This document shows, piece after piece, positions 8,999-25,192 of a DNA stretch of 40,323 nucleotides; position 1 is the first letter of the stretch; each line of letters begins with the position of its first letter. The notes below the pieces were generated by a model, which saw nothing but the letters and a program-made list of their open reading frames with translations, did not search any database and was not told the origin of the DNA. Origin of the DNA: Phaeospirillum sp. (lineage in GTDB: Bacteria > Pseudomonadota > Alphaproteobacteria > Rhodospirillales > Magnetospirillaceae); the NCBI GenBank assembly GCA_030824585.1, contig JAVBXM010000029.1, positions 1-40,323 on the forward strand, in the 5' to 3' direction. The position numbers and the translations under genes are program-made.

Positions 8999-9012
8999 TT
9001 GATCTGGGTCAA
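8999..9012. promoter_or_regulatory. FNR/DNR-type box upstream of narK1
   Basis: TTGATCTGGGTCAA matches the FNR/ANR/DNR consensus TTGAT-N4-ATCAA at 9 of 10 defined positions. It sits in the divergent gap, 147 bases before narK1 and 110 bases before the Crp/Fnr-type start, so it could serve either promoter. The proteins able to bind it are Crp/Fnr regulators with a DNR/FNR-like recognition helix, including the adjacent one. Confidence 0.75.
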
Positions 9013-9158: not shown

Positions 9159-10493
9159 ATGCACGATCTGACTCAAGTCTCCAAGGGCGAACAGAGATTG
9201 GCCCTGTGGTCCAGCACACTCGCCTTTACCGTGTGCTTTGCTGTCTGGACGATTTTCAGCATCCTCGGCATCCAGATTAAGAAGAATCTCGGGCTCAACG
9301 AGACACAGTTCGGGCTGCTGATCGCCACTCCGATCCTGACGGGGTCGCTGGTGCGCCTGATGCTTGGCGTCTGGACCGACCAATACGGCGGGCGGGTGGT
9401 GTTTTCCGTCGTGATGATGATCTCGGCCGTCGCCACCTGGCTGGTGACCACGGCCAGCACCTATGAGGGTTTCCTGCTGGCCGCGCTGGGCGTCGGCATC
9501 TCCGGCGGCGGCTTCGCCGTGGGCATCGCCTATGTGTCGCGCTGGTACCCCAAGGAACGGCAGGGCACCGCCCTGGGCATCTTCGGCATGGGCAACGTCG
9601 GAGCGGCGGTGACCAAGTTCGTCGCGCCGTGGGTGATGGTGGCGTTCGGCTGGGAGATGGTCGCCAACATCTGGGCGGCGGCCATTTTCGTCAGCGGCAT
9701 CCTGTTCTACCTGTGCACCAAGGACGATCCCGTCCTGCGGAGCCGCCGCGCCGTCGGCAAGGAGGCGGATTCACTGGCCAGCATGCTGGGGCCGCTCAGG
9801 GAAGTCCGGGTGTGGCGCTTCTCGCTCTATTACTTCTTCGTGTTCGGCGGCTTCGTGGCGCTCGCCCTGTGGCTGCCGCGCTACTACATGGGCGCCTACG
9901 GCATGGACGTCCAGACGGCGGGCATGCTGGGGGCGGCCTATTCCATTCCGGGAAGCATCTTCCGCGCCATGGGCGGCTGGCTGTCCGACAAGGTGGGAGC
10001 CCGCCGGGTCATGTACTGGACCTTCGTGGTCGGCGCGGTCTGCCTGCTGATCCTCTGCTACCCGGCCACCGACTACGTCGTCCACGGCTTCAAGGGCGAC
10101 ATCAAGTTCAGCCTGTCGCTGGGCTTCGTGCCGTTCACCATCGTCGTCTTCGTCCTGGGCTTCTTCATGTCCCTGGGCAAGGCGGCCGTCTACAAGCACA
10201 TCCCCGTCTACTACCCGCACCACGTGGGCGCGGTCGGGGGCGTGGTCGGCCTGATCGGCGGGCTGGGCGGCTTCATCCTGCCCATCGCGTTCGGCGCCCT
10301 CAACGACCTCACCGGCGTGTGGACCAGCTGCTACATGCTGCTGCTGCTGGTGGTCGTCGCCTCGTTGGCCTGGATGCACTACGCCGTTCGCCGGATGGAG
10401 ACCGAGGCCCTGCGGCGCATGGGCATGCTCGATGGGCCCGCCCTTCCGGTGGGTGACGGCCTGGACCGCATCATGCCGGCGGCCAGCGAATAA
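9159..10493 (+). CDS. narK1: NarK1-type nitrate transporter (MFS)
   Basis: A 444-residue major facilitator with 12 predicted helices. The nitrate/nitrite porter signatures are visible: GISGGGFAVGIAYVSRWYP in helix 5 and GLIGGLGGFILPIAFG in helix 11, together with LGVWTDQYGGR in loop 2-3. Its compact N-terminus and sequence place it with NarK1 (proposed nitrate/proton symport) rather than NarK2. ATG 9159 is preceded by AGGGGG. It is the first gene of the nar operon and lies downstream of an FNR-type box. In Paracoccus the two NarK types are fused into one protein; here they are separate neighbours. Confidence 0.9.
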   Translation: MHDLTQVSKGEQRLALWSSTLAFTVCFAVWTIFSILGIQIKKNLGLNETQFGLLIATPILTGSLVRLMLGVWTDQYGGRVVFSVVMMISAVATWLVTTASTYEGFLLAALGVGISGGGFAVGIAYVSRWYPKERQGTALGIFGMGNVGAAVTKFVAPWVMVAFGWEMVANIWAAAIFVSGILFYLCTKDDPVLRSRRAVGKEADSLASMLGPLREVRVWRFSLYYFFVFGGFVALALWLPRYYMGAYGMDVQTAGMLGAAYSIPGSIFRAMGGWLSDKVGARRVMYWTFVVGAVCLLILCYPATDYVVHGFKGDIKFSLSLGFVPFTIVVFVLGFFMSLGKAAVYKHIPVYYPHHVGAVGGVVGLIGGLGGFILPIAFGALNDLTGVWTSCYMLLLLVVVASLAWMHYAVRRMETEALRRMGMLDGPALPVGDGLDRIMPAASE

Positions 10494-10520
10494 TCCGCAC
10501 GACAACGGATCAAGCGACAT

Positions 10521-10548
10521 GCGGCCAGCAAAGGCTGGCCGCCTTTCT
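10521..10548 (+). terminator. Intercistronic hairpin between narK1 and narK2
   Basis: Perfect 9-base arms GCGGCCAGC (10521-10529) and GCTGGCCGC (10534-10542) with an AAAG loop, followed by CTTTCTT. This resembles an intrinsic terminator, but the T run is short and interrupted. Because narK2 and narGHJI follow with no obvious promoter, it is more likely a partial terminator or an mRNA processing/stability element that lowers expression downstream of narK1. Confidence 0.6.
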
Positions 10549-10568
10549 TGCCAAAATAGGGGGCGAGT

Positions 10569-11978
10569 ATGCATGTTGATGAATCGGGAAAACTCCACCC
10601 GCGGCATGTGCTGACCAACTGGACGCCAGAGGATCCCGATTACTGGGAGAACCAGGGCCGCAAGGTGGCCATGCGCAATCTGTGGATTTCCATGCCGGCC
10701 CTGCTGCTCGCCTTCGCCGTATGGATGGTCTGGAGCGTGGTGGTGGTCAACCTGCCCAATGTCGGGTTCAAGTTCGACACCGATCAGCTGTTCTGGCTGG
10801 CCTCCATGCCCGGCCTGGCCGGGGCGACGTTGCGCATCTTCTATTCCTTCATGGTGCCGATCTTCGGCGGCCGGGCCTGGACGGCCCTGTCCACCGCTTC
10901 GCTGCTGCTTCCGGCGGCGGGAATCGGCTTTGCCGTGCAGGACCCGACGACGCCCTATGCGGTGTTCCTGGGCCTGGCCCTGCTGTGCGGCTTCGGCGGG
11001 GGCAACTTCGCCTCGTCCATGGCCAATATCAGCTTCTTCTTTCCCAAGCATAAGAAGGGCATGGCCCTCGGCCTGAACGCGGGCATCGGCAATCTCGGCG
11101 TCTCGGTGGTGCAGTTCGTGGTTCCCATCGTCATCGCCTCGGCGGTGTTCAGCACCCTGGGCGGCGATCCCCAGACCTGGGTCAAGGGCGCCGAAACCAA
11201 GCGGATGTGGCTGCAGAACGCCGGCTTCATCTGGCTTCCCTTCATCCTGCTCTGCTCCATCAGCGCGTGGTTCGGCATGAACGACATCGCCAGCGCCAAG
11301 GCCTCGTTCCGGGAGCAGGCGGTGATCTTCAAGCGCAAGCACAACTGGATCATGTGCTGGCTCTATCTCGGGACCTTCGGCTCGTTCATCGGCTATTCCG
11401 CCGGCTTCGCGCTCCTGACCAAGACCCAGTTCCCCAATGTCAATCCCCTGGCCTACGCCTTCCTCGGGCCGCTGGTCGGGTCCGTCGCCCGGGTGATCGG
11501 CGGGTTCCTGTCCGACCGTTTCGGCGGCGGCCGCGTCACCTTCTGGACCTTCCTGGTGATGATGTTGGCGGTGTGCGGCGTGCTGTACTTCCTTGGGCAC
11601 AAGGGAGAAGCCATGGCCTTCAACGGCTTCCTGGCCATGTTCCTGCTGCTGTTCGCCGGCACCGGCGTCGGCAACGCCTCCACCTTCCAGATGATCCCGG
11701 TGATCTTCGCCACCTTGAAGCGGCGCGAGGGCAAGACCCGCCATATCCCGGAGATCGAGGCCGGCAAGGAGGCGGCCAAGGAGGCGGCCGCCGTCCTGGG
11801 CTTCAGCTCGGCCCTCGCCGCCTATGGCGCGTTCTTCATCCCGCGCAGCTTCGGGACCTCCATCTCCCTGACGGGCGAGGCCCAGGGGGCGCTGTACATG
11901 TTTCTGGCTTACTACGTCACGTGTCTGTTGGCGACATGGTGGTGGTACACGCGAAACAACGCGGAAATCAAGTGCTGA
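10569..11978 (+). CDS. narK2: NarK2-type nitrate/nitrite transporter (MFS)
   Basis: A 469-residue major facilitator of the E. coli NarK/NarU type. It has a soluble N-terminus with LTNWTPEDPDYWENQG, the signature CGFGGGNFASSMANISFFFPK, and a second signature region LFAGTGVGNASTFQMIPVIF. A charged cytoplasmic loop (KRREGKTRHIPEIEAGKEAA) precedes the last helices, as in NarK2-like proteins. Proteins of this type exchange nitrate for nitrite, which supports the cytoplasm-facing nitrate reductase encoded just downstream. AGGGGG lies 7 bases before the ATG. It is separated from narG by about 37 bases. Confidence 0.9.
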   Translation: MHVDESGKLHPRHVLTNWTPEDPDYWENQGRKVAMRNLWISMPALLLAFAVWMVWSVVVVNLPNVGFKFDTDQLFWLASMPGLAGATLRIFYSFMVPIFGGRAWTALSTASLLLPAAGIGFAVQDPTTPYAVFLGLALLCGFGGGNFASSMANISFFFPKHKKGMALGLNAGIGNLGVSVVQFVVPIVIASAVFSTLGGDPQTWVKGAETKRMWLQNAGFIWLPFILLCSISAWFGMNDIASAKASFREQAVIFKRKHNWIMCWLYLGTFGSFIGYSAGFALLTKTQFPNVNPLAYAFLGPLVGSVARVIGGFLSDRFGGGRVTFWTFLVMMLAVCGVLYFLGHKGEAMAFNGFLAMFLLLFAGTGVGNASTFQMIPVIFATLKRREGKTRHIPEIEAGKEAAKEAAAVLGFSSALAAYGAFFIPRSFGTSISLTGEAQGALYMFLAYYVTCLLATWWWYTRNNAEIKC

Positions 11979-12015
11979 CCACCGCTGGCGGAAATAAGTG
12001 AAAGGCGATCACAAA

Positions 12016-15000
12016 ATGAGTAACTTTATTGATCGGTTGCTGTTCTTCAAGCGTAACGTCGACACCTTCTCCGGCGATCACGGCGTGGTCACCAATGAAA
12101 GCCGGGATTGGGAGGAGGGCTACCGTCGCCGCTGGCAGCATGACAAGGTCGTCCGCTCGACCCATGGCACCAACTGCACCGGGTCCTGCTCGTGGAAGAT
12201 CTACGTCAAGGGCGGCATCGTCACCTGGGAGACGCAGCAGACCGACTATCCCCGCACCCGCCCCGGCATGCCCAATCACGAGCCGCGCGGCTGCCAGCGC
12301 GGAGCCAGTTATTCCTGGTACATGTATTCGGGCAACCGCGTGAAGCATCCGCTGATCCGGGGCGACCTGCTGCGGCTGTGGCGGCACGCCCGGAAGAATC
12401 TGGCCCCGGTCGAGGCCTGGCGCTCCATCGTCGGCGATCCGGAGAAAGCCCGGTCATACAAGTCCATCCGGGGGCTGGGCGGCTTTGTCCGCGCCTCCTG
12501 GGACGAGGCCCAGGAAATCATCGCCGCCGCCAACATCCACACCATCAAGGCCTGGGGGCCGGACCGGGTGGCGGGCTTCTCGCCCATTCCGGCCATGTCC
12601 ATGGTGTCGTTCGCCGCCGGGACGCGCTATCTGTCGCTGATCGGCGGCGTTTCGCTCAGCTTCTACGACTGGTACTGCGACCTGCCGCCGGCCAGTCCCC
12701 AGATGTGGGGCGAACAGACCGACGTGCCGGAATCGGCCGACTGGTACAATTCGAACTTCCTGATTCTCTGGGGCTCCAACGTCCCGCAGACCCGCACCCC
12801 CGACGCCCACTTCTATACCGAGGTCCGCTACAAGGGGGCCAAGAGCGTGGTGGTCTGCCCCGATTATTCGGAAGCCTCCAAGTTCGCCGATCTGTGGCTG
12901 GCCCCCAAGCAGGGAACCGACGCGGCCCTGGCCATGGCCATGGGGCACGTCATCCTCAAGGAATTCCACCTGGGGGAAAACAAGTCCGCCTATTTCGAGG
13001 ATTACTGCCGCCGCACCAGCGACATGCCGCTGCTGGTCCGGCTGGTGCGGCGGGGCGACGCGCTGGTGCCCGACCGCTTCGTGCGCGCCTCGGATTTCGA
13101 CGGCAAGCTGGACCAGGCCAACAATCCCGACTGGAAGACCGTCGGCATCGAGGAGGGCAGCGGCCGCATCGTGGTCCCCAACGGCTCCATCGGCTTCCGC
13201 TGGGGCGAGAAGGGCAAGTGGAACATCGAGCCCAGGGACGGGCGCGACGGCGCCGAGGTCAAACTGGCGCTCAGCCTGATCGACGGCCGTGACGAGGTGG
13301 CCGGCGTGGCCTTCCCCTATTTCGGCCATATCGACCACGAGCATTTCCACAACAATCCCCACCCCGACATCCTGGTGCGCAATGTCCCGGTGAAGCGTCT
13401 GGCCCTGGCCGGCGGCGAAACCCTGGTGACCACCGTCTTCGACCTGATGGCCGCCAATTACGGCATCGACCGGGGATTGGGGGGGCTGCACGTCGCCTCG
13501 GCCTACGACCAGAACGTGCCCTATACCCCGGCGTGGCAGGAACGCATCACCGGCGTGAAGGCCGCCGACGTGATCACCGTCGCCCGCCAGTTCGCCGACA
13601 ACGCCGACCGCACCCATGGCCGGTCCATGGTGATCATCGGTGCGGCCATGAACCACTGGTACCACATGGACATGAACTACCGCAGCATCATCAACATGCT
13701 GGTGATGTGCGGCTGCATCGGCCAGTCGGGCGGCGGCTGGGGCCATTACGTGGGCCAGGAAAAACTGCGGCCGCAGACCGGCTGGGTGCCGCTGGCCTTC
13801 GCCACCGACTGGGTGCGGCCGTCGCGCCAGATGAACTCGACCTCGTATTTCTACAATCACACCGACCAGTGGCGGCACGAGAAGCTGTCGGTGAAGGAAA
13901 TCCTCTCGCCGCTGGCCAATCCCGACGATTTCAAGGGAGCGCTGATCGACTTCAACGTTCGCTCGGAACGCATGGGCTGGTTGCCCTCGGCGCCGCAATT
14001 GGAGAAGAATCCGCTGGACCTGGTCCGCGAGGCCCGCGCCGCCGACAAGGACCCGGTGCGTCACGCCGTGGAGGGGCTGACCTCCGGGGCGCTGCGGATG
14101 TCGTGCGAGGACCCCGACAATCCCCGCAACTTCCCCCGCAATCTCTTCGTCTGGCGCTCCAATCTCCTGGGTTCGTCGGGCAAGGGGCACGAGTATTTCC
14201 TGAAATACCTGCTGGGCACCCAGCATGGCGTCATGAACGACGACAACGGGGATTCGGGCGGCGAGAAGCCGACCGAGGTGACCTGGCGCGACGCGCCGGC
14301 CGACGGCAAGCTGGACCTGCTGGTGACGCTGGATTTCCGCATGTCCACCACCTGCCTGTACTCCGACATCGTCCTGCCGACCGCCACCTGGTACGAGAAG
14401 AACGACCTCAACACCTCGGACATGCATCCGTTCATCCATCCGCTCAGCCTGGCGGTGGACCCGGCCTGGGAGGCCCGTTCCGACTGGAACATCTACAAGG
14501 GCATCGCCAAGCGGTTCTCCGAGCTTGCGGTCGGCCATCTGGGGGTCGAGTCCGATCTGGTGCTGACTCCCATGATGCACGACACCCCCGGTGAACTGGC
14601 CCAGGCCCTGGATGTCAAGGACTGGAAGGCGGGCGAGATCGAGGCCATTCCCGGCAAGACCATGCCGGCCATGACCATCGTCGAGCGCGACTATCCCAAC
14701 ACCTACAAGCGCTTCACCGCGCTGGGCCCGCTGATGAAGACGCTGGGCAACGGCGGCAAGGGCATTTCGTGGAACACCGACGAGGAGGTGGACGCCCTGG
14801 GAGCCCTCAACCGTCTGGTGGCCGAGGACGGCGTGACCAAGGGTATGCCCCGGCTGGACACCGACATCGACGCCGCCGAGGCGATCTTGATGCTGGCGCC
14901 CGAGACCAACGGGCACGTGGCGGTCAAGGCCTGGGAGGCCCTGTCCAAATCCACCGGCCGCGATCACGTCCACCTCGCCCTGCACCGCGAGGACGAGAAG

Positions 15001-15750
15001 ATCCGGTTCCGCGACATCCAGGCGCAGCCGCGCAAGATCATCTCGTCGCCCACCTGGTCGGGCCTGGAATCCGAGAAGGTCAGCTACAACGCCGGCTACA
15101 CCAACGTGCACGAGATGATCCCCTGGCGGACCCTGACCGGGCGCCAGCAATTCTACCAAGACCACAAGTGGATGCTGGGCTTCGGCGAGGGCTTGTGCGT
15201 CTACCGCCCGCCCATCGACACCAAGACCATCCGGCCGGTGATCGAGTCCAAGGCGTCGGGCGCCAAGCAGGTGGTGCTCAACTGGATCACCCCGCACCAG
15301 AAATGGGGCATCCACAGCACCTACACCGACAATTTGATCATGCTGACCCTGTCGCGCGGCGGGCCGATCGTCTGGCTGTCGGAAAAGGACGCGGCCAAGG
15401 CGGACATCGAGGACAACGACTGGATCGAGGTCTTCAACGCCAACGGCGCCATCGCGGCCCGCGCGGTGGTCAGCCAGCGCGTCAAGGAAGGCATGTGCAT
15501 GATGTACCACGCTCAGGAGAAGATCGTGAACACCCCCGGCGCCGAGACCACCAAGCTGCGCGGCGGCATCCACAATTCGGTCACCCGGGCCAGCGTCAAG
15601 CCGACCCATATGATCGGCGGCTACGCCCAGCAATCCTACGGCTTCAATTACTACGGAACGGTCGGCTCCAACCGCGACGAATTCGTGGTGGTGCGCAAGA
15701 TGACCAATGTGGACTGGCTCGAAGGCCGTCTTGAAGGAAGGGGGGCCTGA
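12016..15750 (+). CDS. narG: Respiratory nitrate reductase alpha subunit
   Basis: A 1244-residue molybdo-bis-PGD catalytic subunit (E. coli NarG 1247), near-identical in layout to NarG throughout. The FS0 cluster ligands are His50, Cys54, Cys58 and Cys93 (HGTNCTGSC and RGCQRG). The Mo ligand Asp222 lies in DWYCDLPPASP. Strongly conserved blocks include QDIQAQPRKIISSPTWSG-like DIQAQPRKIISSPTW and GIHSTYTDNLIMLTL. There is no twin-arginine signal of the periplasmic type, so the enzyme faces the cytoplasm. ATG 12016 (MSNFIDRLLFFK) aligns with other NarG proteins; a GTG at 11998 would add six residues. It is followed after 3 bases by narH. Confidence 0.98.
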   Translation: MSNFIDRLLFFKRNVDTFSGDHGVVTNESRDWEEGYRRRWQHDKVVRSTHGTNCTGSCSWKIYVKGGIVTWETQQTDYPRTRPGMPNHEPRGCQRGASYSWYMYSGNRVKHPLIRGDLLRLWRHARKNLAPVEAWRSIVGDPEKARSYKSIRGLGGFVRASWDEAQEIIAAANIHTIKAWGPDRVAGFSPIPAMSMVSFAAGTRYLSLIGGVSLSFYDWYCDLPPASPQMWGEQTDVPESADWYNSNFLILWGSNVPQTRTPDAHFYTEVRYKGAKSVVVCPDYSEASKFADLWLAPKQGTDAALAMAMGHVILKEFHLGENKSAYFEDYCRRTSDMPLLVRLVRRGDALVPDRFVRASDFDGKLDQANNPDWKTVGIEEGSGRIVVPNGSIGFRWGEKGKWNIEPRDGRDGAEVKLALSLIDGRDEVAGVAFPYFGHIDHEHFHNNPHPDILVRNVPVKRLALAGGETLVTTVFDLMAANYGIDRGLGGLHVASAYDQNVPYTPAWQERITGVKAADVITVARQFADNADRTHGRSMVIIGAAMNHWYHMDMNYRSIINMLVMCGCIGQSGGGWGHYVGQEKLRPQTGWVPLAFATDWVRPSRQMNSTSYFYNHTDQWRHEKLSVKEILSPLANPDDFKGALIDFNVRSERMGWLPSAPQLEKNPLDLVREARAADKDPVRHAVEGLTSGALRMSCEDPDNPRNFPRNLFVWRSNLLGSSGKGHEYFLKYLLGTQHGVMNDDNGDSGGEKPTEVTWRDAPADGKLDLLVTLDFRMSTTCLYSDIVLPTATWYEKNDLNTSDMHPFIHPLSLAVDPAWEARSDWNIYKGIAKRFSELAVGHLGVESDLVLTPMMHDTPGELAQALDVKDWKAGEIEAIPGKTMPAMTIVERDYPNTYKRFTALGPLMKTLGNGGKGISWNTDEEVDALGALNRLVAEDGVTKGMPRLDTDIDAAEAILMLAPETNGHVAVKAWEALSKSTGRDHVHLALHREDEKIRFRDIQAQPRKIISSPTWSGLESEKVSYNAGYTNVHEMIPWRTLTGRQQFYQDHKWMLGFGEGLCVYRPPIDTKTIRPVIESKASGAKQVVLNWITPHQKWGIHSTYTDNLIMLTLSRGGPIVWLSEKDAAKADIEDNDWIEVFNANGAIAARAVVSQRVKEGMCMMYHAQEKIVNTPGAETTKLRGGIHNSVTRASVKPTHMIGGYAQQSYGFNYYGTVGSNRDEFVVVRKMTNVDWLEGRLEGRGA

Positions 15751-15753
15751 GCC

Positions 15754-17268
15754 ATGAAGATCCGCGCACAGATCGCAATGGTTCTGAACCTGGACAAATG
15801 CATCGGCTGCCATACCTGCTCGGTCACCTGCAAGAACGTGTGGACCACGCGGGAAGGGGTCGAATACGCCTGGTTCAACAACGTCGAGACCAAGCCGGGC
15901 ATCGGCTATCCCAAGGACTGGGAGAACCAGGACAAGTGGCAGGGCGGCTGGCGCCGCCGCGCCAACGGCACGCTGGTCCCCCGGCTGGGGTCGCGCGCCT
16001 CGCTGGTGGCGAAGATCTTCAACAATCCGCGCCTGCCGGAAATCGACGATTACTACGAGCCGTTCACCTTCGACTACGAGCACCTGCAGAAGGCCGGCGT
16101 GTCGAGGACCCCGCCCACCGCCCGCCCCCGCTCGCTGGTGACCCGCAAGCGCATGGAAAAGATCGAGTGGGGGCCGAACTGGGAGGAAATCCTCGGCACC
16201 GAGTTCCGCAAGCGCTCGAAGGACCAGAACTTCGCCAACATCCAAAAGGAGATGTACGGCGAGTTCGAGAACACCTTCATGATGTACCTGCCCAGGCTGT
16301 GCGAGCATTGCCTCAATCCGGCCTGCGTCGCGGCGTGCCCCTCGGGCTCCATCTACAAGCGTGAAGAGGACGGCATCGTCCTGATCGACCAGGACAAGTG
16401 CCGGGGCTGGCGCATGTGCGTGTCGGCCTGCCCGTTCAAGAAGATTTATTACAACTGGAAATCCGGCAAGGCGGAGAAGTGCATCTTCTGCTACCCGCGC
16501 ATCGAATCGGGGCAGCCGACGGTGTGCTCGGAGACCTGCGTGGGGCGCATCCGCTACCTCGGCGTGGTGCTTTACGATGCCGACCGGATCGAGGCGGCGG
16601 CATCGGCCGAGCGCGAGACCGATCTTTACGAAGCGCAGATGAACATCTTCCTCGACCCCCATTCCCCAGAGGTCCAGGCCCAGGCCCGCCGCGACGGCGT
16701 CCCCGAGGCCTGGCTGAACGCCGCGGCGGAATCCCCGGTGTGGAAGATGGCCATGGATTGGAAGGTGGCCTTTCCGCTGCATCCCGAATACCGGACGCTG
16801 CCCATGGTCTGGTACATCCCGCCGCTGTCGCCCATCCAGGGACGCGCCGATTCGGGAGCCATCGGCGTCAACGGCGTGATCCCCGACGTCACCAGCCTGC
16901 GCATTCCCGTGCGCTATCTCGCCAACATGCTGACGGCCGGCGACGAGAAGCCGGTGGTTTCGGCCCTGGAGCGGATGCTGGCCATGCGCGCCTACATGCG
17001 GTCCAAGACGGTGGACGGGGTGGCCGATCTGGCTCCGTTGCAGCAGGTGGGGCTGACCGAGGCGCAGGCCGAGGAAATGTACCGCATCATGGCCATCGCC
17101 GATTACGAGGACCGCTTCGTGGTGCCCACCACGCACCGCGAATACGCCGAGAACGCCTTCGACCTGAAGGGCAGTTGCGGCTTCTCGTTCGGCGACGGTT
17201 GCGGCGGCAGCTCCCAGACCAGCCTGTTCGGCTCACCCGGGCGCAAGCCCGCCAGCGCGGCGGAGTGA
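15754..17268 (+). CDS. narH: Respiratory nitrate reductase beta subunit
   Basis: A 504-residue iron-sulfur electron-transfer subunit. Four cysteine groups are visible: CIGCHTCSVTC near residue 16, CEHCLNPACVAACP near residue 184, CRGWRMCVSACP near residue 217, and CIFCYPRIESGQPTVC near residue 244. Tryptophan replaces a cysteine in the third group, the hallmark of the [3Fe-4S] cluster of NarH. Electrons pass from NarI through these clusters to FS0 in NarG. It overlaps nothing but sits 3 bases after narG and 5 before narJ, consistent with one transcript. Confidence 0.98.
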   Translation: MKIRAQIAMVLNLDKCIGCHTCSVTCKNVWTTREGVEYAWFNNVETKPGIGYPKDWENQDKWQGGWRRRANGTLVPRLGSRASLVAKIFNNPRLPEIDDYYEPFTFDYEHLQKAGVSRTPPTARPRSLVTRKRMEKIEWGPNWEEILGTEFRKRSKDQNFANIQKEMYGEFENTFMMYLPRLCEHCLNPACVAACPSGSIYKREEDGIVLIDQDKCRGWRMCVSACPFKKIYYNWKSGKAEKCIFCYPRIESGQPTVCSETCVGRIRYLGVVLYDADRIEAAASAERETDLYEAQMNIFLDPHSPEVQAQARRDGVPEAWLNAAAESPVWKMAMDWKVAFPLHPEYRTLPMVWYIPPLSPIQGRADSGAIGVNGVIPDVTSLRIPVRYLANMLTAGDEKPVVSALERMLAMRAYMRSKTVDGVADLAPLQQVGLTEAQAEEMYRIMAIADYEDRFVVPTTHREYAENAFDLKGSCGFSFGDGCGGSSQTSLFGSPGRKPASAAE

Positions 17269-17273
17269 CCCCC

Positions 17274-17933
17274 ATGATCACTCTGAAAATTCTGGCGGCG
17301 CTGCTCGACTACCCCAATGAGGAGGTCATCGCCGATCTTCCCGAATTGGGGGCCATGCTGGCGGCGGACAGCATGCTGCCCGCCCAGGTGACGGAAAGGA
17401 TCGATGAGTTCATCTCCGCCCTGGCGTCGCGGGATCTCCTGGAGGCGCAGGCGGACTGGGTGGAGCAATTCGACCGCAGCCGGTCGCTGTCCCTGAACCT
17501 GTTCGAGCATGTTCACGGCGATTCCCGCGACCGGGGCCAGGCCATGGTCGACCTCCGGGCCATGTATCTGGGGCACGGCCTCGAGATCGGGGTGAGCGAG
17601 CTGCCCGATTATCTGCCCCTGCTGCTCGAATTCCTGTCCACCCGTCCGGAGATGGAAGCGCTCAACCTGCTGGCCGAGGCCGGTCACGTGGTGGCCGCCC
17701 TGGGCCAGCGCCTCGCCTCCCGCAACAGCCCCTACGCTCCCATCATGGCGGCGGTGGCGTCCCTGGCCGGGGCGTCCGCCCGGGAGACGGGCGTGGTCGC
17801 CACCCCCGACGTGGATGACGACCTGGACGAGGTCTGGGCCGAAGCGCCCGTGGAATTCGGGGCGGGATCGGCCCTGGCCGGCTGCCCGGGCGGCGCGGCC
17901 ATGGCGGCCAGATTGGAAGGAACCGGACAATGA
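17274..17933 (+). CDS. narJ: Nitrate reductase assembly chaperone
   Basis: A 219-residue helical chaperone of the NarJ/TorD family that holds apo-NarG during insertion of the molybdenum cofactor. Family motifs are ALLDYPNEEV at the N-terminus, SLNLFEHVHGDSRDRGQAMVDL around residue 75 and ELPDYLPLLLEFLS around residue 110. The C-terminus is acidic and low-complexity. ATG 17274 is used; the frame is open far upstream, but that is a shadow of narH. The stop overlaps the narI start (ATGA). Confidence 0.95.
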   Translation: MITLKILAALLDYPNEEVIADLPELGAMLAADSMLPAQVTERIDEFISALASRDLLEAQADWVEQFDRSRSLSLNLFEHVHGDSRDRGQAMVDLRAMYLGHGLEIGVSELPDYLPLLLEFLSTRPEMEALNLLAEAGHVVAALGQRLASRNSPYAPIMAAVASLAGASARETGVVATPDVDDDLDEVWAEAPVEFGAGSALAGCPGGAAMAARLEGTGQ

Positions 17934-18637
17934 GCACTCTCAATTTCTTTTTCTTCGGCATCTATCCCTATATCGCCGCCAGCGTCTTCCTGATCGGCAG
18001 CCTGGTCCGGTTCGACTACCAGCCCTATACCTGGAAAAGCGGGTCGAGCCAGTTCCTCCGCCAGCGCGGGATGCCGTTCGCCAGCAACGCCTTCCATATC
18101 GGCATCATCTTGCTGCTGCTCGGCCATGCCGTCGGCCTGCTGACGCCCCACGGCCTCTACACCGCCCTCGGACTCAGCGCCGGGACCAAGCAGGTGCTGG
18201 CCATGACCGCCGGCGGCATCTTCGGGACGCTGTGCCTGCTCGGCATGGTCATCTTGGTGCATCGGCGCCTCACCGATGACCGGGTCGCCGCCGCCGGCTC
18301 GGCCATGGACACCTTCATCCTGCTGCTGTTGCTGGTCCAACTGGTGATCGGGCTGCTGACCATTCCGGCCTCGGCCTCCCACCATGACGCCACGGTGATG
18401 CTGGTTCTGGCCGAATGGGCCCAGCGCATCGTCACGTTCCGGGGCGGGGCGGCGGAACTGGTGGCCGGAACCGACATGGTGTTCCAGATTCATCTGGTGC
18501 TCGGCCTGACCATCGTGCTGCTGGCCCCCTTCAGCCGGCTGGTGCACGTGTGGAGCGCTCCGCTCTCCTATCTGGTCCGGCGCTACCAACTGGTGCGCAG
18601 CCGCCATCGCGACGTTTCGCGAGCCCGCGCCGGCTGA
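17930..18637 (+). CDS. narI: Respiratory nitrate reductase gamma subunit (cytochrome b)
   Basis: A 235-residue membrane subunit with five helices that binds two b hemes and oxidises quinol. The four heme ligands are recognisable: the pair in FHIGIILLLLGHAVGL (helix 2) and the pair in FQIHLVLGLTIVLLAPFSRLVHVW (last helix, written here in parts as FQIHLVLG and SRLVHVW). N-terminus FFFFGIYPYIA is typical. The start overlaps the narJ stop by 4 bases. A strong terminator follows 45 bases after the stop, closing the nar operon. Confidence 0.96.
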   Translation: MSTLNFFFFGIYPYIAASVFLIGSLVRFDYQPYTWKSGSSQFLRQRGMPFASNAFHIGIILLLLGHAVGLLTPHGLYTALGLSAGTKQVLAMTAGGIFGTLCLLGMVILVHRRLTDDRVAAAGSAMDTFILLLLLVQLVIGLLTIPASASHHDATVMLVLAEWAQRIVTFRGGAAELVAGTDMVFQIHLVLGLTIVLLAPFSRLVHVWSAPLSYLVRRYQLVRSRHRDVSRARAG

Positions 18638-18974: not shown

Positions 18975-19487
18975 ATGCAGGATATCGCGTGGAAGGTAAG
19001 TATCTTCCAAATATTATTCATGGTTATCGTATTCATTGTAATATATGCAAAGTCACATATTGTTGCGCCCGTCGATGGTTTGGCCCAGGAAAAGACGCGG
19101 CGCTCGCTATTCATTGTTCTGATTGCCATGGGTATTCCCCTGGCATTCCATACCCTGGCCGACCTTCCCTATGCCGTACCGGATCGGACGGGCGGTCCGG
19201 TGCAGGTGGTCGAGGCCGTCGGGCGGCAATGGGAGTGGACGCTGAGCCGGAATACCTTCCGGGTTGGCGAGACCGTGGAGTTCCGCGTCACCAGCGCCGA
19301 CGTCAATCACGGCTTCGGCATCTATGACGGTTCCATGCGGGTGGTGGCCCAGACCCAGGCCATGCCGGATTACGTCAACACCCTGCGCCACAAGTTCCAG
19401 ACACCCGGAAAGTACACAATCCTGTGCCTCGAATATTGCGGCCTTGCCCATCACGCCATGTCGGCGGAGTTCGAAGTGCGCCCGTAG
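18975..19487 (+). CDS. norY: CuA-type subunit II of an sNOR-like heme-copper enzyme
   Basis: A 170-residue protein with two N-terminal membrane helices (about 8-26 and 44-62) and a periplasmic cupredoxin domain. All CuA ligands are present: His112, Cys151, Cys155, His159 and Met162, the last four in CLEYCGLAHHAM. It is shorter than ordinary cytochrome oxidase subunit II (about 250 or more). Short CuA subunits accompany B-family oxidases and sNOR enzymes. AGGAGG 6 bases upstream supports ATG 18975; a frame start at 18933 lacks this. It is first in a four-gene operon with subunit I, SCO and a membrane protein. The symbol follows the nitrifier norS/norY-senC-orf1 cluster and rests on gene order plus the partner's active site. 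Confidence 0.75.
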   Translation: MQDIAWKVSIFQILFMVIVFIVIYAKSHIVAPVDGLAQEKTRRSLFIVLIAMGIPLAFHTLADLPYAVPDRTGGPVQVVEAVGRQWEWTLSRNTFRVGETVEFRVTSADVNHGFGIYDGSMRVVAQTQAMPDYVNTLRHKFQTPGKYTILCLEYCGLAHHAMSAEFEVRP

Positions 19488-19530
19488 GCGATAGCGTTCG
19501 CCGCACAATATTCATCTCCAGGAGGGGAAC

Positions 19531-20988
19531 ATGAAAGCCGTTTCGGACACTGCAAGGCTGCCGCTGGACAGCTCGGCGAGGCGCGGGGTGCTGGCCTATC
19601 TGGTCGCCACCATCGCCATTTTCGTTCTGATGATGATCTTCGGCCTGCTCATGCGCGCCGCCCAGGCGCAGGCCTTCGGCCTGGATACCGGCCTGTTCTA
19701 TCAGATCATGACGGTGCACGGCATCGGCACGGTGGGAGCCGCCGGCCTGGGCGGTGCCATGATCTGCTGGTATTTCCTGCGTCATTACGTGGTGCTCAGC
19801 ACCGCGGTCCTGGTCCTCAACCTGGGGCTGTTCGTCACCGGCGTGGTGCTGATCCTGGGCGGGGCCTTCCTCGGGGAATTTGCCGGGGGATGGAACTTCC
19901 TCTACCCGCTGCCCGCCATGTCCCAAGGCGCGTGGAGCAATGGCGCGGCGGCGGCGTTCCTGCTTGGCCTGCTGCTCATCGGCAGCGGCTTCCTGGTCTT
20001 CTACCTCGACATGGCGCGGGCGATCCTCGGCAAGTACGGCAGCTTCTCCCGGGCGCTGGGCTGGCCCCAGCTGTTCGGAACCAGCGACGCGCCGCCGCCG
20101 CCGGCCGCGGTGGTGGCGGCGACGGTGATCTTCACCATGAACATCCCCGGCATCCTGGTGGGGGCGACCATCTTGGTGCTGAACCTGGTCAGCCTGTATG
20201 CGCCCGAATACCGGATCGACGCGCTGATGGCCAAGAACATGACCTATTTCTTCGGCCACGTTTTCATGAACGGCACCATCTACCAGTGCCTTATCGCGGT
20301 GTTCGAGATCATGCCGCGGCACACCGGCCGCCCCTGGAAGATCAACAAGTGGTTCCTGGGCGGCTGGACCGCGTCGGGCCTGATGGTCATCTTGGTCTAT
20401 CCCCAGCATCTGCTGATGGATTTCGTCATGCCCGAATGGATGCTGATCGTCGGGCAGGTCGTCTCGTGGGTCCATGGACTGCCGGTCCTGCTGATCTCGG
20501 TGTTCGGCACCCTGGCCAACGTCCATCGTTCGGGCATCCGCTGGAACATGACGTCGGGACTGCTGTTCTTTGCCATGCTGGGCTGGGCGGCGGGCGTGTT
20601 CCCCGGCGTCGCCGACGCGACGATCATCGTCAATCAGGTCATGCACAATACCCAGTGGGTGCCGGGGCATTTCCACACCTACTTCCTTCTCAGCCTGGTC
20701 TCCATGCTGTTCGGCTTCGGCTATCACCTGATGATGGACATGCACGGCGACAAGGCGTCGCTGATCGACCGGGTGGGGTTCTGGCTGTTCACCCTGGGCG
20801 GTTTCGGCTTCATCCTGGCCTTCCTGGCCGGGGGTGCGGCCGGGGTGCCCCGCCGCTACGCGGTCCATCTGGCGGAATGGCTGGTGTACGACCGGGCCGG
20901 CACCATCTTCGCGGCCATGTCGGTGACGGCGGCCCTGGTGTTCATGGTCCGCTTCCTGCGCAACCTGAACAAGGGAGTGTCCTCTTGA
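19531..20988 (+). CDS. norS: Heme-copper subunit I with NO-reductase-like active site (sNOR-like)
   Basis: A 485-residue, roughly 12-helix heme-copper superfamily catalytic subunit. The heme ligands are kept: His63 (MTVHGIGT) and the pair His380/His382 (VPGHFHTY). The binuclear metal site is altered. Helix VI reads GHVFMNGTIY, so the position of the cross-linked tyrosine of oxidases (H-x3-Y) is Asn247. Helix VII reads YPQHLLMDF, with Gln292 in place of the first of the usual two histidines. Loss of that tyrosine argues against oxygen reduction and for NO reduction. A following SenC gene and the CuA subunit match the sNOR clusters of nitrifiers. AGGAGGGG precedes the ATG. Alternative: an uncharacterised B-family-derived enzyme. 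Function is inferred, not shown. Confidence 0.75.
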   Translation: MKAVSDTARLPLDSSARRGVLAYLVATIAIFVLMMIFGLLMRAAQAQAFGLDTGLFYQIMTVHGIGTVGAAGLGGAMICWYFLRHYVVLSTAVLVLNLGLFVTGVVLILGGAFLGEFAGGWNFLYPLPAMSQGAWSNGAAAAFLLGLLLIGSGFLVFYLDMARAILGKYGSFSRALGWPQLFGTSDAPPPPAAVVAATVIFTMNIPGILVGATILVLNLVSLYAPEYRIDALMAKNMTYFFGHVFMNGTIYQCLIAVFEIMPRHTGRPWKINKWFLGGWTASGLMVILVYPQHLLMDFVMPEWMLIVGQVVSWVHGLPVLLISVFGTLANVHRSGIRWNMTSGLLFFAMLGWAAGVFPGVADATIIVNQVMHNTQWVPGHFHTYFLLSLVSMLFGFGYHLMMDMHGDKASLIDRVGFWLFTLGGFGFILAFLAGGAAGVPRRYAVHLAEWLVYDRAGTIFAAMSVTAALVFMVRFLRNLNKGVSS

Positions 20989-21002
20989 CCAGGGAGTCGT
21001 GG

Positions 21003-21593
21003 ATGGCCCTTGCCGTCACGGTTCTCCTGGGGGCCGGCTTTCTGTGGTGGAGCACCGACGAGTTGCGTGCCTTCACCACGGAAGGCGCCCGCCGCCTGGC
21101 CGTCTCGCGGCAGCCGCGCGCCCTTCCGGTGGTTCGCCTGGAAGACCAGGGGGGCAATTCCTTCGGGTTCGACGACTACCAGGGGCAATACCTGGTGGTG
21201 GAGTTCATCTACAGCCGGTGCCCGACCCTGTGCACCACGCTGGGGCAATCGTTTCAGCGCATCGCCGCCGGGGTGGCGCCCGGCCGGCTGGGGCGCGACC
21301 TCTCGCTGCTCAGCATCACGTTCGATACTGTCCACGACGATACCCAGGCCCTGCGGGGCTATGCCGAGCGCTTCGGGGCGGACGGGCGGGGCTGGCGGGT
21401 GGCCCGCCTGAACGAGCCGGACCAACTGGCGCCCCTGCTCCGCACCTTCGGCGTCGTGGTGATTGCCGACGACATGGGGGGATTCGAGCATAACGCCGCC
21501 CTCCATCTGGTCGATCCGGCGGGGCGGCTGTCGCAAATCTACGACTACCGCGCCGCCAGCCGGGTGATCGCCGACCTGGGAGGGGCGCGATGA
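21003..21593 (+). CDS. senC: SCO1/SenC family copper chaperone
   Basis: A 196-residue thioredoxin-fold protein anchored by an N-terminal helix (VTVLLGAGFLWW). The copper-binding motif CPTLC (Cys73, Cys77) and the distal histidine in GGFEHNAAL (His163) are present. SCO proteins load or reduce the CuA centre of subunit II, here presumably NorY. Two starts are possible: ATG 21003 with AGGGAG 6 bases upstream, or TTG 20985 overlapping the subunit I stop, with AGGGAG 7 bases upstream; the latter would add MTRESW. The stop overlaps the next gene (ATGA). Confidence 0.88.
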   Translation: MALAVTVLLGAGFLWWSTDELRAFTTEGARRLAVSRQPRALPVVRLEDQGGNSFGFDDYQGQYLVVEFIYSRCPTLCTTLGQSFQRIAAGVAPGRLGRDLSLLSITFDTVHDDTQALRGYAERFGADGRGWRVARLNEPDQLAPLLRTFGVVVIADDMGGFEHNAALHLVDPAGRLSQIYDYRAASRVIADLGGAR

Positions 21594-23185
21594 ACCGGGC
21601 ATCGGCCGGGATACGGCGGAATTCCGCCGTCGCCGCCATATCCCTGGGAAGCGTGCTGCTGGTTCCGGCGGTGGCGCGGAGCATGGAGGCGACCCTGGTC
21701 GGCCACATGCTGGTGCAGATCCCCTTGCTGATCGTGGCGGGTGGGCTGGCGGCGCTGGCCCTGCCCCACCGGCCGCCGTCCTGGGAGACGCGATTCAACG
21801 GGAACGGCGCCTGCGGACTGGTCCTGGCCACGCTCATCCTGCTGTACTGGATGCTGCCCCGGACCCTGGACGCCGCCCTGGTCGATCCGGTGACGGAGAT
21901 GGCCAAATTCCTGACGGTTCCCCTGGTGGGAGCCGCCATCATCCTCAGTTGGCGGCGGATGGGGTTCGTGGGGCGAAGTTTCGTCCACCTCAATGCCATA
22001 TCCATGTTCGCCGCCGAGGGCTGGCTGTACCGCATCGCGCCGGAACGGCTGTGCAACGCCTATCTGCTCAACGAGCAGGTGAGCGTCGGGACCGGCTTCC
22101 TCGGGCTGGCCGGCATTCTGGCGGCGGCGGTTTTCCGCAAGACGCTGTTCGCTCCGTTTCGCGGCGGCGGCGCGGACGGCATCACCATGCCTGTCGTTCC
22201 CGTCTCGCTGTTCGGGATCATTCTCGGCGTCGCCGGCCTGGGAAATTGCTGGCGGGTGGCCGCCCGCCTCTGGGGGCTGCCCGCGTGGATCGGCGAGGCG
22301 ATCCTGGCCCTGGCGGGCGGCATCTGGGCGGTGCTGGCGCTGCTGTTCATGCTCAAGTGGCTGTTTGCCCGCGCCGCAGCCATCGCCGAGGCACGCCACC
22401 CCGTCACGAGCTGCTTCGTCGGTCTGGTGTTCGTCACCACGCTGCTGACCGCGGTCTCGGTCCTGCCCTATTCGCGCCCGGCGGCGCTGGGGCTGGCGAT
22501 CGTCGGCTGGGGCGGCCACATCGTGTTCAGCGGGGCGGTGACCGGCGGGCTGTGGCGGGCCGAGCGCGATCCGGCAAGCCTGACGGCGGTTCTCTACTTG
22601 CCGACCGTCGCCGGCAACTTCGTCAGCGCCATCGCCGCCGGCGCGCTCGGCTATCCCCAGTTCGGCATGCTGTTCCTGGGGGCCGGGCTGATTTCGTGGC
22701 TGTCCATCGAGTCGGTGCTGATGCACCAGATGTACACCATGGGACCGCTGGCCCCGGCCATCCGCCCGACCCTGGGCATCCAACTGGCGCCGCCGGTGGT
22801 CTGCTGCGTCGCCTATCTGGCGGTGAATGGCGGCGTGCCGGACAGTTTCGCGCAGATTCTGTTCGGTTACGGCCTGCTGCAGGCGGCCATCATGATCCGG
22901 CTGGTTCCCTGGTTCGCGTCCCAGCCGTTCGTTCCCGGCCACTGGGCGTTCAGCTTCGGCGTGGTCGCCCTGCCGCTTTCCGCCTTGCGGATGGTCCAGA
23001 ACGGCGTCGAGGGCCCCATCGCCGAACTGGCCATTCCCCTGTTCGTCGCGGCCAATCTGATCATCGGCTATTTCCTGGCGCGGACCTTCTGGTTGCTGGT
23101 CACCGGCCGCCTGCTGGTTCCGGCCGCCGCCAAGGCGCACGACACGCCGGACCGGATGGCGCGGGCGGATGGGATCACGTCCTAA
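21590..23185 (+). CDS. Two-part membrane protein: unknown N-terminal domain fused to TehA/SLAC1-type domain
   Basis: A 531-residue polytopic protein. Residues about 200-520 align with E. coli TehA along its full length. Examples are VSLFGIILGVAGLGNCWR (TehA: YFGIVLGTIGMGFAWR), YLPTVAGNFVSAIAAGALGY, LGAGLISWLSIESV, TLGIQLAP and LFGYGLLQ. TehA belongs to the SLAC1 anion-channel fold. Residues 1-190 form a separate hydrophobic domain of about five helices with VGHMLVQIPLLIVAGGL, faintly recalling CtaG-type oxidase assembly proteins; I do not recognise it with confidence. Its place matches orf1 in norSY-senC-orf1 clusters. It is translationally coupled to senC. A role in moving an anion such as nitrite, or in metal-centre assembly, is speculation. 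Confidence 0.8.
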   Translation: MNRASAGIRRNSAVAAISLGSVLLVPAVARSMEATLVGHMLVQIPLLIVAGGLAALALPHRPPSWETRFNGNGACGLVLATLILLYWMLPRTLDAALVDPVTEMAKFLTVPLVGAAIILSWRRMGFVGRSFVHLNAISMFAAEGWLYRIAPERLCNAYLLNEQVSVGTGFLGLAGILAAAVFRKTLFAPFRGGGADGITMPVVPVSLFGIILGVAGLGNCWRVAARLWGLPAWIGEAILALAGGIWAVLALLFMLKWLFARAAAIAEARHPVTSCFVGLVFVTTLLTAVSVLPYSRPAALGLAIVGWGGHIVFSGAVTGGLWRAERDPASLTAVLYLPTVAGNFVSAIAAGALGYPQFGMLFLGAGLISWLSIESVLMHQMYTMGPLAPAIRPTLGIQLAPPVVCCVAYLAVNGGVPDSFAQILFGYGLLQAAIMIRLVPWFASQPFVPGHWAFSFGVVALPLSALRMVQNGVEGPIAELAIPLFVAANLIIGYFLARTFWLLVTGRLLVPAAAKAHDTPDRMARADGITS

Positions 23186-23331: not shown

Positions 23332-24657
23332 ATGGGGGTCGAGGAGGCGCCGGCATCATCGGGAGGGGACGCTCACCACAAGAGCGCCCTGCGGACCCGC
23401 TTGGGGACGCTGATTCTGATCCGCTGGCTGGCCATCGGCGGCCAGTCCGCGACGGTCCTGGTGGTCGAGGTGTTTCTCGGCCATCTGGCGCTGATGCCGG
23501 TGGTGCTGACCATCGGCGCCTCGGCCATCTTCAACGCCGTGCAGAATGTCGACCGTGGCGGCGCGTGGTGCCTCGACCAGCGCCAGGCCACCTGGCACAT
23601 CGCCTTCGACGTGCTGCAGATGTGCCTGCTGATCAGCCTCACCGGCGGGCCGCAGAACCCGTTCTGCATCTTCATCATGGGGCCGGTGGCGGTGGCCGCC
23701 GCCATCCTGCCGGCCCGGAACACGATGCTGATCTGCGGGCTGGCCGTGGCGGGCATCACCGTGGCGGGAGTGGTCCACCTGCCGCTGCCCTGGCCGGTGA
23801 CCCTGGTGTTTCCCGGCGTCTACACCTTCGGCGTCTGGGTCGCCCTGTGCGTCGGCATCGTCTCGGTCAGCTTCTTCACCTGGCATATGGCCAACGAGAC
23901 CCGGCGCATGGACGCGGCCTATGAAGCCAGCCGCACCGCCCTGCTCAAGGAGCAGAAGGCAGCGGCGGTCGGAGGGCTGGCGGCCATGGTGGCGCATGAA
24001 CTCAACACGCCCCTGGCCACCGTCTGCCTCCTGGCCCAGGAGATCGTCGCCCAGGCGCCGCCCGACAGCCCCTATATCGAGGATATGGCGCTGCTGCTGG
24101 GCCAGACGGAGCGATGTCGCGAGATTCTGAAACGGCTGTACCGCCGCCGGGAATACGACGCCATGGTCGGCGACGAGACCGTCTCCATCTCCACCCTGGT
24201 CGAGATGGCGGCGGCGCCGTACCGCGACATGGCCATCGAACTGCACTTTTCCAGCCGGTCCGATACCGGCCCCGCCAAGGCGGAACCCTGGATCGTGCGA
24301 AGCCCGGAAATCCTTCACGGCCTCGGCAACCTCTTCCAGAATGCCTTCCAGTTCGCGGCCACCCGCGTCGACGTCGAGACCGAGTGGGGGGCGGACAGCC
24401 TCTCCGTCCGCATTCACGACGACGGGCCGGGATATCCCGAGCGCCTGATGGAGCATCTGGGAGAGCCCTACATCTCCAACCGGGACCAGGACGGCACCCA
24501 TCTCGGCCTGGGTATTTTCATCGCCAACACGCTGCTGTCCCATACCGGGGGGCAATTGTTCTTCCGCAACGCCGATGACGGCGGTGCGGAGGTGGCGGTG
24601 CGGTGGCGCATGGCTGATCTGCTTGGAACCTCATCGGCACTGGAGCAGCATGGCTGA
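23332..24657 (+). CDS. regB: Redox sensor histidine kinase RegB/PrrB
   Basis: A 441-residue membrane kinase with six N-terminal helices. The RegB hallmarks are all present: quinone-site motif GGPQNPF (105-111), H-box VAHELNTPLATV with His222, and the redox-active cysteine Cys262 in RCREIL. An ATP-binding domain follows, with N-box LFQNAFQFA and G-boxes DDGPG and GLGLGIF-like HLGLGIFIAN. RegB senses the redox state of the quinone pool and controls photosynthesis, denitrification and oxidase genes in alphaproteobacteria. GGAG precedes ATG 23332. It overlaps regA by 8 bases. Its position right after the nor-type operon suggests it regulates it. Confidence 0.92.
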   Translation: MGVEEAPASSGGDAHHKSALRTRLGTLILIRWLAIGGQSATVLVVEVFLGHLALMPVVLTIGASAIFNAVQNVDRGGAWCLDQRQATWHIAFDVLQMCLLISLTGGPQNPFCIFIMGPVAVAAAILPARNTMLICGLAVAGITVAGVVHLPLPWPVTLVFPGVYTFGVWVALCVGIVSVSFFTWHMANETRRMDAAYEASRTALLKEQKAAAVGGLAAMVAHELNTPLATVCLLAQEIVAQAPPDSPYIEDMALLLGQTERCREILKRLYRRREYDAMVGDETVSISTLVEMAAAPYRDMAIELHFSSRSDTGPAKAEPWIVRSPEILHGLGNLFQNAFQFAATRVDVETEWGADSLSVRIHDDGPGYPERLMEHLGEPYISNRDQDGTHLGLGIFIANTLLSHTGGQLFFRNADDGGAEVAVRWRMADLLGTSSALEQHG

Positions 24658-25192
24658 CGATCTTGCCCAGGAAACCATCCTCGTCGTCGACGACGACGAT
24701 CCCTTCCGCCTCAGCCTGACCCGCGCCCTTCAGCGCCGCCACCTGACGGTATACGCGGTCGGCACCATCGCCGAGGCCATGGCGGTGGCGGAGGGAACCT
24801 CCCTCACCTACGCGGCGGTCGACCTCCGGCTGGGCAACAGCAACGGGCTGGATCTGGTCCGCATCCTGCGCGAGACCGCGCCGTCCACCCGCATCGTGCT
24901 GTTGACCGGATACGGCAACATCGCGTCGGCGGTCACCGCCATCAAGGCCGGCGCCGCCGACTACCTGCCCAAGCCGGTGGACGTCGAGCATCTGCTGTCG
25001 GTACTGCGGGGCGAGGAGGCCCGGGCCGAACCGGCCATCGAGGCCGAACCCATGACTCCCGAGCGGGTCCGCTGGGAGCATATCAACCGGGTGTTCGGCG
25101 AGTGCGGCCACAATGTGTCCGAGACCGCCCGGCGCCTGCGCATGCACCGCCGGACCTTGCAGCGCATCCTCGGCAAGCACGCGCCGTCCTGA
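24650..25192 (+). CDS. regA: Redox response regulator RegA/PrrA
   Basis: A 180-residue response regulator. The receiver has the acidic pocket DDDD (14-17), phospho-acceptor Asp58 in AAVDLRLG, and the lysine in YLPKPVD. A short proline/acidic linker leads to a Fis-type helix-turn-helix, NVSETARRLRMHRRTLQRIL, at the very C-terminus, as in RegA. The start ATG 24650 lies inside the end of regB, with GGAG upstream, so the pair is translationally coupled. RegA targets are loosely defined GC-rich sites, which I could not identify by eye. Confidence 0.92.
   Translation: MADDLAQETILVVDDDDPFRLSLTRALQRRHLTVYAVGTIAEAMAVAEGTSLTYAAVDLRLGNSNGLDLVRILRETAPSTRIVLLTGYGNIASAVTAIKAGAADYLPKPVDVEHLLSVLRGEEARAEPAIEAEPMTPERVRWEHINRVFGECGHNVSETARRLRMHRRTLQRILGKHAPS

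What the first reader, a model, noticed from the sequence alone, without database searches (positions are those of the whole stretch)
18975..23185. sNOR-like nitric oxide reductase operon in an alphaproteobacterial nitrate-respiration island
Subunit I keeps its heme histidines (63, 380, 382) and helix VI His243, but has Asn247 where oxidases carry the cross-linked tyrosine and Gln292-His293 where two copper histidines are usual. The gene order CuA subunit, subunit I, SenC, membrane protein matches the norSY-senC-orf1 clusters described in nitrifiers. The substitutions are seen directly; the NO-reductase function is inferred. Such a protein is easily mis-annotated as cytochrome c oxidase, so this may be an overlooked NO reductase in a denitrifier.
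Basis: partly seen in the sequence, partly recalled or inferred. Interest (0 to 1): 0.78.

Follow-up and report, generated by a model that had tools for sequence, protein, structure and literature searches.

The report
sNOR-lineage enzyme missing one copper histidine
A denitrifying bacterium carries an operon for a rare, usually mislabelled class of suspected nitric-oxide reductase, and in this one copy an otherwise fixed copper-binding histidine of the active site has become glutamine, so it is either an altered enzyme or a failing one.

Summary
18975-23185 encodes a CuA subunit, a heme-copper subunit I, SenC/Sco and a membrane protein, with H63, H243, N247, Q292-H293, H380 and H382 as stated. 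Subunit I falls in the clade of named sNOR carriers (Nitrosomonas, Nitrosospira, Ruegeria pomeroyi; SH-aLRT 100), with norSY-senC-orf1 gene order (113 of 119 loci). Asn247 is family-wide. Gln292 is not: the 98 other distinct lineage proteins examined all have His there, as do 146 of 148 heme-copper proteins. The window is the sole dissenter at five near-invariant columns (no other row more than two), while its CuA, SenC and Orf1 partners dissent at none. The fourth gene fuses Orf1 to a TehA/SLAC1 anion channel, not seen in the other loci held; 37 of 80 named loci carry a formate/nitrite transporter nearby. The genome also has cNOR- and eNOR-type subunits and NosZ. Most likely: an electron-fed sNOR derivative with an altered metal-B site. 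A sequencing error at one codon, loss of activity, oxygen reduction, or NO-dismutase-like chemistry are not excluded. New variant of a known kind; function untested.

The parts
18975..19487 (+). CuA subunit (NorS/coxB2-like), CuA ligands intact
   Evidence: Pfam COX2 28 bits over cut-off 22; 0 of 17 near-invariant columns departed from
19531..20988 (+). Heme-copper subunit I of the sNOR lineage (NorY-like)
20269..20271 (+). Codon of Asn247, where oxygen reductases have the cross-linked Tyr
   Evidence: Asn in 97 of 98 other sNOR-lineage rows, the other one an unread X
20404..20406 (+). Codon CAG of Gln292, where the other sNOR-lineage proteins examined have the first helix-VII CuB histidine
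   Evidence: 98 of 98 others His; 146 of 148 heme-copper proteins His
20985..21593 (+). SenC/Sco1-like protein, overlapping subunit I by four bases
   Evidence: PF02630 51 bits; Cys and His ligands intact, 0 of 9 near-invariant columns departed from
21590..22189 (+). Orf1 domain (residues 1-200) of the fused fourth protein
   Evidence: 35-46% identical to Orf1 of 19 other loci; 0 of 15 near-invariant columns departed from
22190..23185 (+). TehA/SLAC1 anion-channel domain fused in frame to Orf1
   Evidence: NF008032 395.6 bits over cut-off 342; PF03595 106 bits; no TehA match at E 1e-6 in any locus held other than copies of the window
9159..11978 (+). Two NarK-family nitrate/nitrite transporters
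   Evidence: the first below, the second above the TIGR00886 cut-off
11998..18637 (+). narGHJI nitrate reductase operon, directly upstream
   Evidence: the same adjacency within the fetched flanks of 1 of 80 named related loci, L018
23332..24657 (+). RegB/PrrB/ActS redox-sensing histidine kinase (context)
   Evidence: NF033792 425.6 bits over cut-off 350
24575..25192 (+). RegA/PrrA/ActR-like response regulator (context; start codon uncertain)
   Evidence: NF033791 216.7 bits, below its cut-off of 250

Best explanation
A membrane complex of the sNOR lineage. The CuA subunit takes electrons from a periplasmic donor and passes them to subunit I, whose low-spin heme (H63, H382) and active-site heme (H380; ligand roles recalled from the superfamily) face a metal-B site. 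In relatives metal B is held by three histidines plus a nearby Asn in place of Tyr; here it is held by H243, H293 and Gln292. SenC (and perhaps Orf1) serve copper delivery and assembly, and the fused TehA/SLAC1 channel moves an anion, plausibly nitrite or nitrate, next to the nitrate reductase. The enzyme most likely still reduces NO, or disposes of it, at a metal-B site of altered affinity or reactivity during nitrate respiration. Shown: genes, motifs, lineage, partner integrity, uniqueness of Gln292 in the samples. Inferred: cofactors, substrate, activity, and that Gln binds the metal.
For: Inside the sNOR clade with Nitrosomonas, Nitrosospira and Ruegeria; profile score 795 bits against at most 55 for any protein outside the lineage in 200 genomes. 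Operon order in 113 of 119 loci. CuA, Sco and Orf1 near-invariant residues all kept (0 of 17, 9 and 15 departed from) beside a private H292Q. The open frame is intact with high third-position GC (0.90), and genes 2-4 overlap. Four further sole departures (T122N, T323S, A359G, G388S) and Y258F (one other row also departs there, to D), of which Y258F and T323S align to Thermus ba3 Y248 and T315 (their K-path role is recalled), suggest a co-ordinated shift of subunit I. It lies among nar genes in a genome with NosZ.
Against: No activity, spectrum or expression is known. Gln292 rests on one base of a 262-contig draft. Whether Gln can hold the metal is unknown. The genome has two other NOR-type subunits, so the gene may be dispensable. 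The literature disputes NO reduction as the main role of sNOR.
Confidence: 0.5

Rival explanations
1. Codon 292 is a sequencing or assembly error (CAC/CAT read as CAG) and the protein is an ordinary sNOR.
For: One-base difference; draft of 262 contigs; no second genome of the species could be searched (genus search: 16 others, 3 with an sNOR, 52-54% identical).
Against: The protein also departs alone at four other near-invariant columns and has the second longest end branch of 72 (1.1 against a median of 0.27), so it is divergent whatever codon 292 reads.
Confidence: 0.15
2. Subunit I has lost activity: relaxed constraint after cNOR and eNOR made it dispensable.
For: Loss of a CuB ligand, accelerated divergence, and two other NOR-type subunits in the genome.
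Against: No stops or frameshifts, high third-position GC, and partners with no departures from near-invariant columns, which a decaying operon would not be expected to keep.
Confidence: 0.2
3. It is a high-affinity oxygen reductase, as PMC6967387 proposes for sNOR of Nitrosomonas europaea.
For: A CuA donor, and the same fold as B-type oxidases; the proposal and the sNOR up-regulation under oxygen limitation are in print (passages read).
Against: The cross-linked tyrosine is absent, a CuB ligand is lost, the genome has aa3- and cbb3-type oxidases, and the setting is nitrate respiration.
Confidence: 0.1
4. NO-dismutase-like or other non-reductive NO chemistry, parallel to the putative NODs derived from qNOR, in which one metal-ligand histidine is replaced by asparagine.
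For: His-to-amide change at a metal-B ligand, with an amide already at the Tyr/Glu position; the NOD changes are in PMC3413370 (passages read).
Against: Putative NODs lose their electron entry, whereas here the CuA subunit is intact.
Confidence: 0.05

Closest known systems
sNOR (norSY-senC-orf1) of ammonia oxidisers, e.g. Nitrosomonas, Nitrosospira
   Same: Clade, 51-53% identity of subunit I to the Nitrosomonas and Nitrosospira loci, Asn247, gene order and CuA subunit
   Different: Gln292 instead of the CuB histidine; sole departures at four further near-invariant columns; Orf1 fused to TehA/SLAC1; next to narGHJI
sNOR on the megaplasmid of Ruegeria pomeroyi DSS-3
   Same: CuA-subunit I-Sco-Orf1 operon; annotated as oxidase
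   Different: His292; a separate formate/nitrite transporter gene follows Orf1; a cbb3 operon is the neighbour
B-type oxygen reductases (Thermus ba3, 1ehk)
   Different: Tyr and the CuB histidine pair present in ba3; weak sequence similarity (49 bits for the profile)
Putative NO dismutases (NOD) from the qNOR family
   Same: A metal-B histidine replaced by an amide residue (Asn there, Gln here)
   Different: Different family; NODs lack electron entry (PMC3413370, passages read)

Membership tests
sNOR | Subunit I groups with named sNOR carriers | tested here: met
   64-row tree: 35-row branch SH-aLRT 100, 34-row branch without Thermomicrobium 97
sNOR | Asn in place of the active-site Tyr (PMC8756737 Table A4, passage read) | tested here: met
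   N247; 97 of 98 other rows N, one X
sNOR | CuA-bearing second subunit encoded directly upstream | tested here: met
   18975-19487, ligands intact
sNOR | norSY-senC-orf1 gene order | tested here: met
   Same order in 113 of 119 loci; Orf1 is fused to TehA here
sNOR | Three CuB histidines, as in the other members examined | tested here: not met
   Gln292; 98 of 98 others His. Hence described as of sNOR descent, not filed as a canonical sNOR
Heme-copper oxidase superfamily | Signature sextet of histidines (PMC3413370, passage read) | tested here: not met
   Five of six kept: H63, H243, H293, H380, H382; the sixth is Q292
sNOR | NO reduction to N2O | not testable with these tools
   Needs biochemistry; also unsettled for the family
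sNOR | No proton channel (PMC8756737 Table A4) | not tested
   Only two positions compared with ba3
bNOR (CuANOR) and B-type oxidase | Grouping with Bacillota bNOR-like or ba3-like proteins (labels inferred from motif, both from one genome) | tested here: not met
   L158 (Asn) and L152 (Tyr) pair with each other and then with eNOR-type proteins, not with the window
eNOR | Gln in place of the active-site Tyr | tested here: not met
   N247; the genome's eNOR-type subunit is a separate gene, L004
NO dismutase | Metal-ligand His replaced, no external electron entry, qNOR descent | tested here: not met
   CuA subunit intact and sNOR descent; no NOD or qNOR was in the tree

The most novel reading that the evidence does not exclude
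A natural heme-copper enzyme of sNOR descent whose metal-B site is built from two histidines and a glutamine, tuned for a different NO chemistry, and coupled through an Orf1-TehA fusion to anion movement beside the nitrate reductase: a second, independent case of His-to-amide change at metal B after the NO dismutases.
Probability: 0.12. Interest if true: 0.8.

Novelty: new variant of a known kind. Interest (0 to 1): 0.5.

Why it matters
If Gln292 is real, this is a natural test of whether all three CuB histidines are needed in the sNOR lineage, and a natural variant for asking what separates NO reduction, O2 reduction and NO dismutation. It also shows that sNOR operons, labelled as oxidases in public records, must be checked ligand by ligand before being counted as NO reductases in N2O budgets. 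The recurrent formate/nitrite transporter beside sNOR operons (37 of 80 named loci), and an anion channel fused in here, suggest that nitrite movement may belong to the system.

Tried and rejected
Orf1 as a CtaG copper-insertion factor: Thermomicrobium has a Caa3_CtaG gene in its cluster, but profile comparison gave probability 0.2%; 3 of 20 Orf1 members touch DUF1404, best E 3.5e-06, the window's member none; no PDB relative at E up to 1. Rejected.

Horizontal transfer of the window's operon: the trees place it apart from the three same-genus sNORs, but holding them in one clade is not rejected (AU p 0.458), so no claim is made. The neighbour named by the 64-row tree (Thiohalobacter/L092, SH-aLRT 82) changed in the 72-row trees.

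Anion channel in place of the nitrite transporter: weakened by the fact that 43 of 80 named loci gave no formate/nitrite transporter match within their flanks, and the three same-genus operons gave none either, also with longer flanks (L093-L095, L097-L099).

Regulation: an FNR-like site (8999-9012) lies before narK1, none was listed before the CuA gene; over the whole window such sites number 11 against 6.75 expected by chance. The promoter scan gave nothing usable.

Viral contigs: no match. Distances in the model could not be measured, as no coordinate file was found. No NOR is among the 50 structures shown, which says nothing.

Overall divergence is only modest in plain identity: subunit I has rank 11 from the bottom of 74, CuA 28 of 79, SenC 48 of 83, Orf1 26 of 87.

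Literature on CuB-ligand replacement: one search listed none, one search listed 6 of 11 and one search listed 13 papers; of these only PMC3413370 was opened for it, so I claim nothing about what is or is not in print there.

Full report
What is there. Four genes on the + strand: CuA subunit (18975-19487), heme-copper subunit I (19531-20988), SenC (20985-21593) and a membrane protein (21590-23185); genes 2 and 3, and genes 3 and 4, overlap by four bases. Pfam names COX2, COX1, SCO1-SenC and SLAC1, all above cut-off. The curated NCBIfam oxidase models CoxB and CtaD_CoxA match only far below cut-off (50.1 against 147.7 bits, 38.1 against 670.75 bits). Upstream lie two narK genes and narGHJI; downstream a RegB/PrrB-type kinase and a RegA-like regulator. 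Further upstream are NnrS, a benzoate-CoA ligase-like protein (358.3 bits, just below the cut-off of 375.25) and benzoyl-CoA reductase subunit B (821 bits, cut-off 486.55).

Lineage. Profile A1 scores the window at 795 bits; in the 200 Pseudomonadota genomes searched the four lineage members score 772-840 bits and nothing else exceeds 55. One scan of named genomes gave 519 pattern matches and 396 relatives; only the best 80 were kept, among them Nitrosomonas, Nitrosospira, Nitrosovibrio, Aromatoleum, Roseomonas and the Bacillota species Alkalibacillus aidingensis. In a 64-row tree, chosen from the 148 heme-copper proteins (L006 left out), the window sits in a branch of 35 proteins, all Asn-type (SH-aLRT 100), apart from bNOR-like, ba3-like, eNOR-type, A-type, cbb3-type and cNOR-type proteins, whose labels rest on motifs. 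Silicibacter and betaproteobacteria are among the sNOR carriers listed in Table A4 of PMC8756737 (passage read; that Ruegeria pomeroyi is the former Silicibacter is recalled), and norSY-senC-orf1 is the published name of the N. europaea cluster (PMC4940428, passages read). The gene is sporadic: 4 of 17 genomes of the genus, 5 of 55 of the family, 5 of 317 of the order, 5 of 385 of the class sample and 6 of 398 of the phylum sample, own genome included; in the family of G338 it is 8 of 299.

The private change. Over 99 distinct lineage proteins held (score over 350 bits; L158 fell below), position 292 is His in all 98 others and Gln in the window. The 316 further relatives were not fetched, so the sample is partial. 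Over 148 distinct heme-copper proteins of all types, 146 have His; the exceptions are the window and L006, a protein of the same genome without either helix-VII histidine. Position 247 is Asn in 97 of 98, the other one unread. Of 73 columns with at most two dissenters among 99 rows, the window departs at six (T122N, Y258F, H292Q, T323S, A359G, G388S); the distant Thermomicrobium protein departs at 16 and no other row at more than three. Without Thermomicrobium, 21 columns have exactly one dissenter; the window is that dissenter in five, and no other row in more than two. In the partners, the same kind of count gives none of 17 (CuA, 97 rows), none of 9 (SenC, 94 rows) and none of 15 (Orf1, 96 rows); hits covering under 55% of the query were dropped, and the tolerance was slightly looser. 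The end branch of the window is 1.1 against a median of 0.27 in a 72-row tree thinned from the 99. By plain identity the window is only moderately remote, and it is not shown to be foreign to its genus (AU p 0.458).

Neighbours. CuA-subunit I-SenC-Orf1 is complete in 113 of 119 loci, some of which are one place fetched twice. narGHJI lies next to it in 1 of 80 named loci, L018, Rhodocyclaceae, in the same order and orientation; flanks were at most 8 kb and often cut by contig ends. A formate/nitrite transporter (PF01226 for the Ruegeria copy) was matched in 37 of 80 named loci, 24 of them downstream on the same strand; among 67 loci with at least 2.5 kb on both sides the number is 31; the three same-genus operons gave none. 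In the window the place after Orf1 holds a TehA/SLAC1 domain in one frame with Orf1; no locus held, other than copies of the window, has a TehA match at E 1e-6. I infer, and did not test, that it stands in for a nitrite channel. A search for papers holding two of sNOR, norSY, nirC, tehA and 'formate nitrite transporter' listed 10 papers; no title names this link, but the papers were not read for it.

The genome. Six PF00115 proteins: aa3-type (L001), cbb3-type (L002), cNOR-type with Glu (L003), eNOR-type with Gln (L004), the window and L006. Four cytochrome d1 domain proteins score over 350 bits; their split into NirS, NirN and NirF was not resolved. NosZ is of the Sec-dependent type (885.9 bits, cut-off 625). 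The organism is therefore probably a full denitrifier with three NOR-type subunits. It is not named by the tools; the same family holds G422, whose contig has the length (240,755) of the contig of L072, titled 'Rhodospirillales bacterium'.

Function. I read no direct proof that an sNOR reduces NO: PMC6967387 cites indirect evidence in Nitrococcus mobilis and argues for high-affinity oxygen reduction in N. europaea (passages read); PMC11388526 says that sNOR has been proposed as a NOR and counts it as one (passages read). The main description of the newer NOR families (PNAS 2024, recalled) is not held. The nearest published parallel that I saw to a His-to-amide change at metal B is the putative NO dismutase, His to Asn, with loss of electron entry (PMC3413370, passages read); here electron entry is kept. 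I therefore favour an electron-fed sNOR derivative with an altered metal-B site, with loss of activity (0.2) and a base-calling error (0.15) as the main alternatives.

Noticed in passing
L006:1363-2715 (own genome, C75:6311-7462): A heme-copper-fold protein without both helix-VII CuB histidines lies about 4.4 kb from the eNOR-type gene L004 (C75:11828-13132); no NCBIfam match at E 1e-5.
   Followed up: no
L014-L091, 37 of 80 named loci: A formate/nitrite transporter gene recurs beside sNOR operons, 24 times downstream on the same strand.
   Followed up: partly
window 8999-9012: FNR-like site TTGATCTGGGTCAA between a Crp/Fnr-family regulator (8185-8934, -) and narK1.
   Followed up: no
L105:6638-7839: A second SenC-Orf1 pair directly upstream of the CuA gene of the same operon in genome G366.
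   Followed up: no
L173:5444-9238: Thermomicrobium roseum plasmid has a distant Asn-type relative (34%) with CuA subunit, formate/nitrite transporter and CtaG, without Sco or Orf1 matches.
   Followed up: partly
window 1185-6239: NnrS, a benzoate-CoA ligase-like protein and a benzoyl-CoA reductase subunit B upstream of the nar operon.
   Followed up: no
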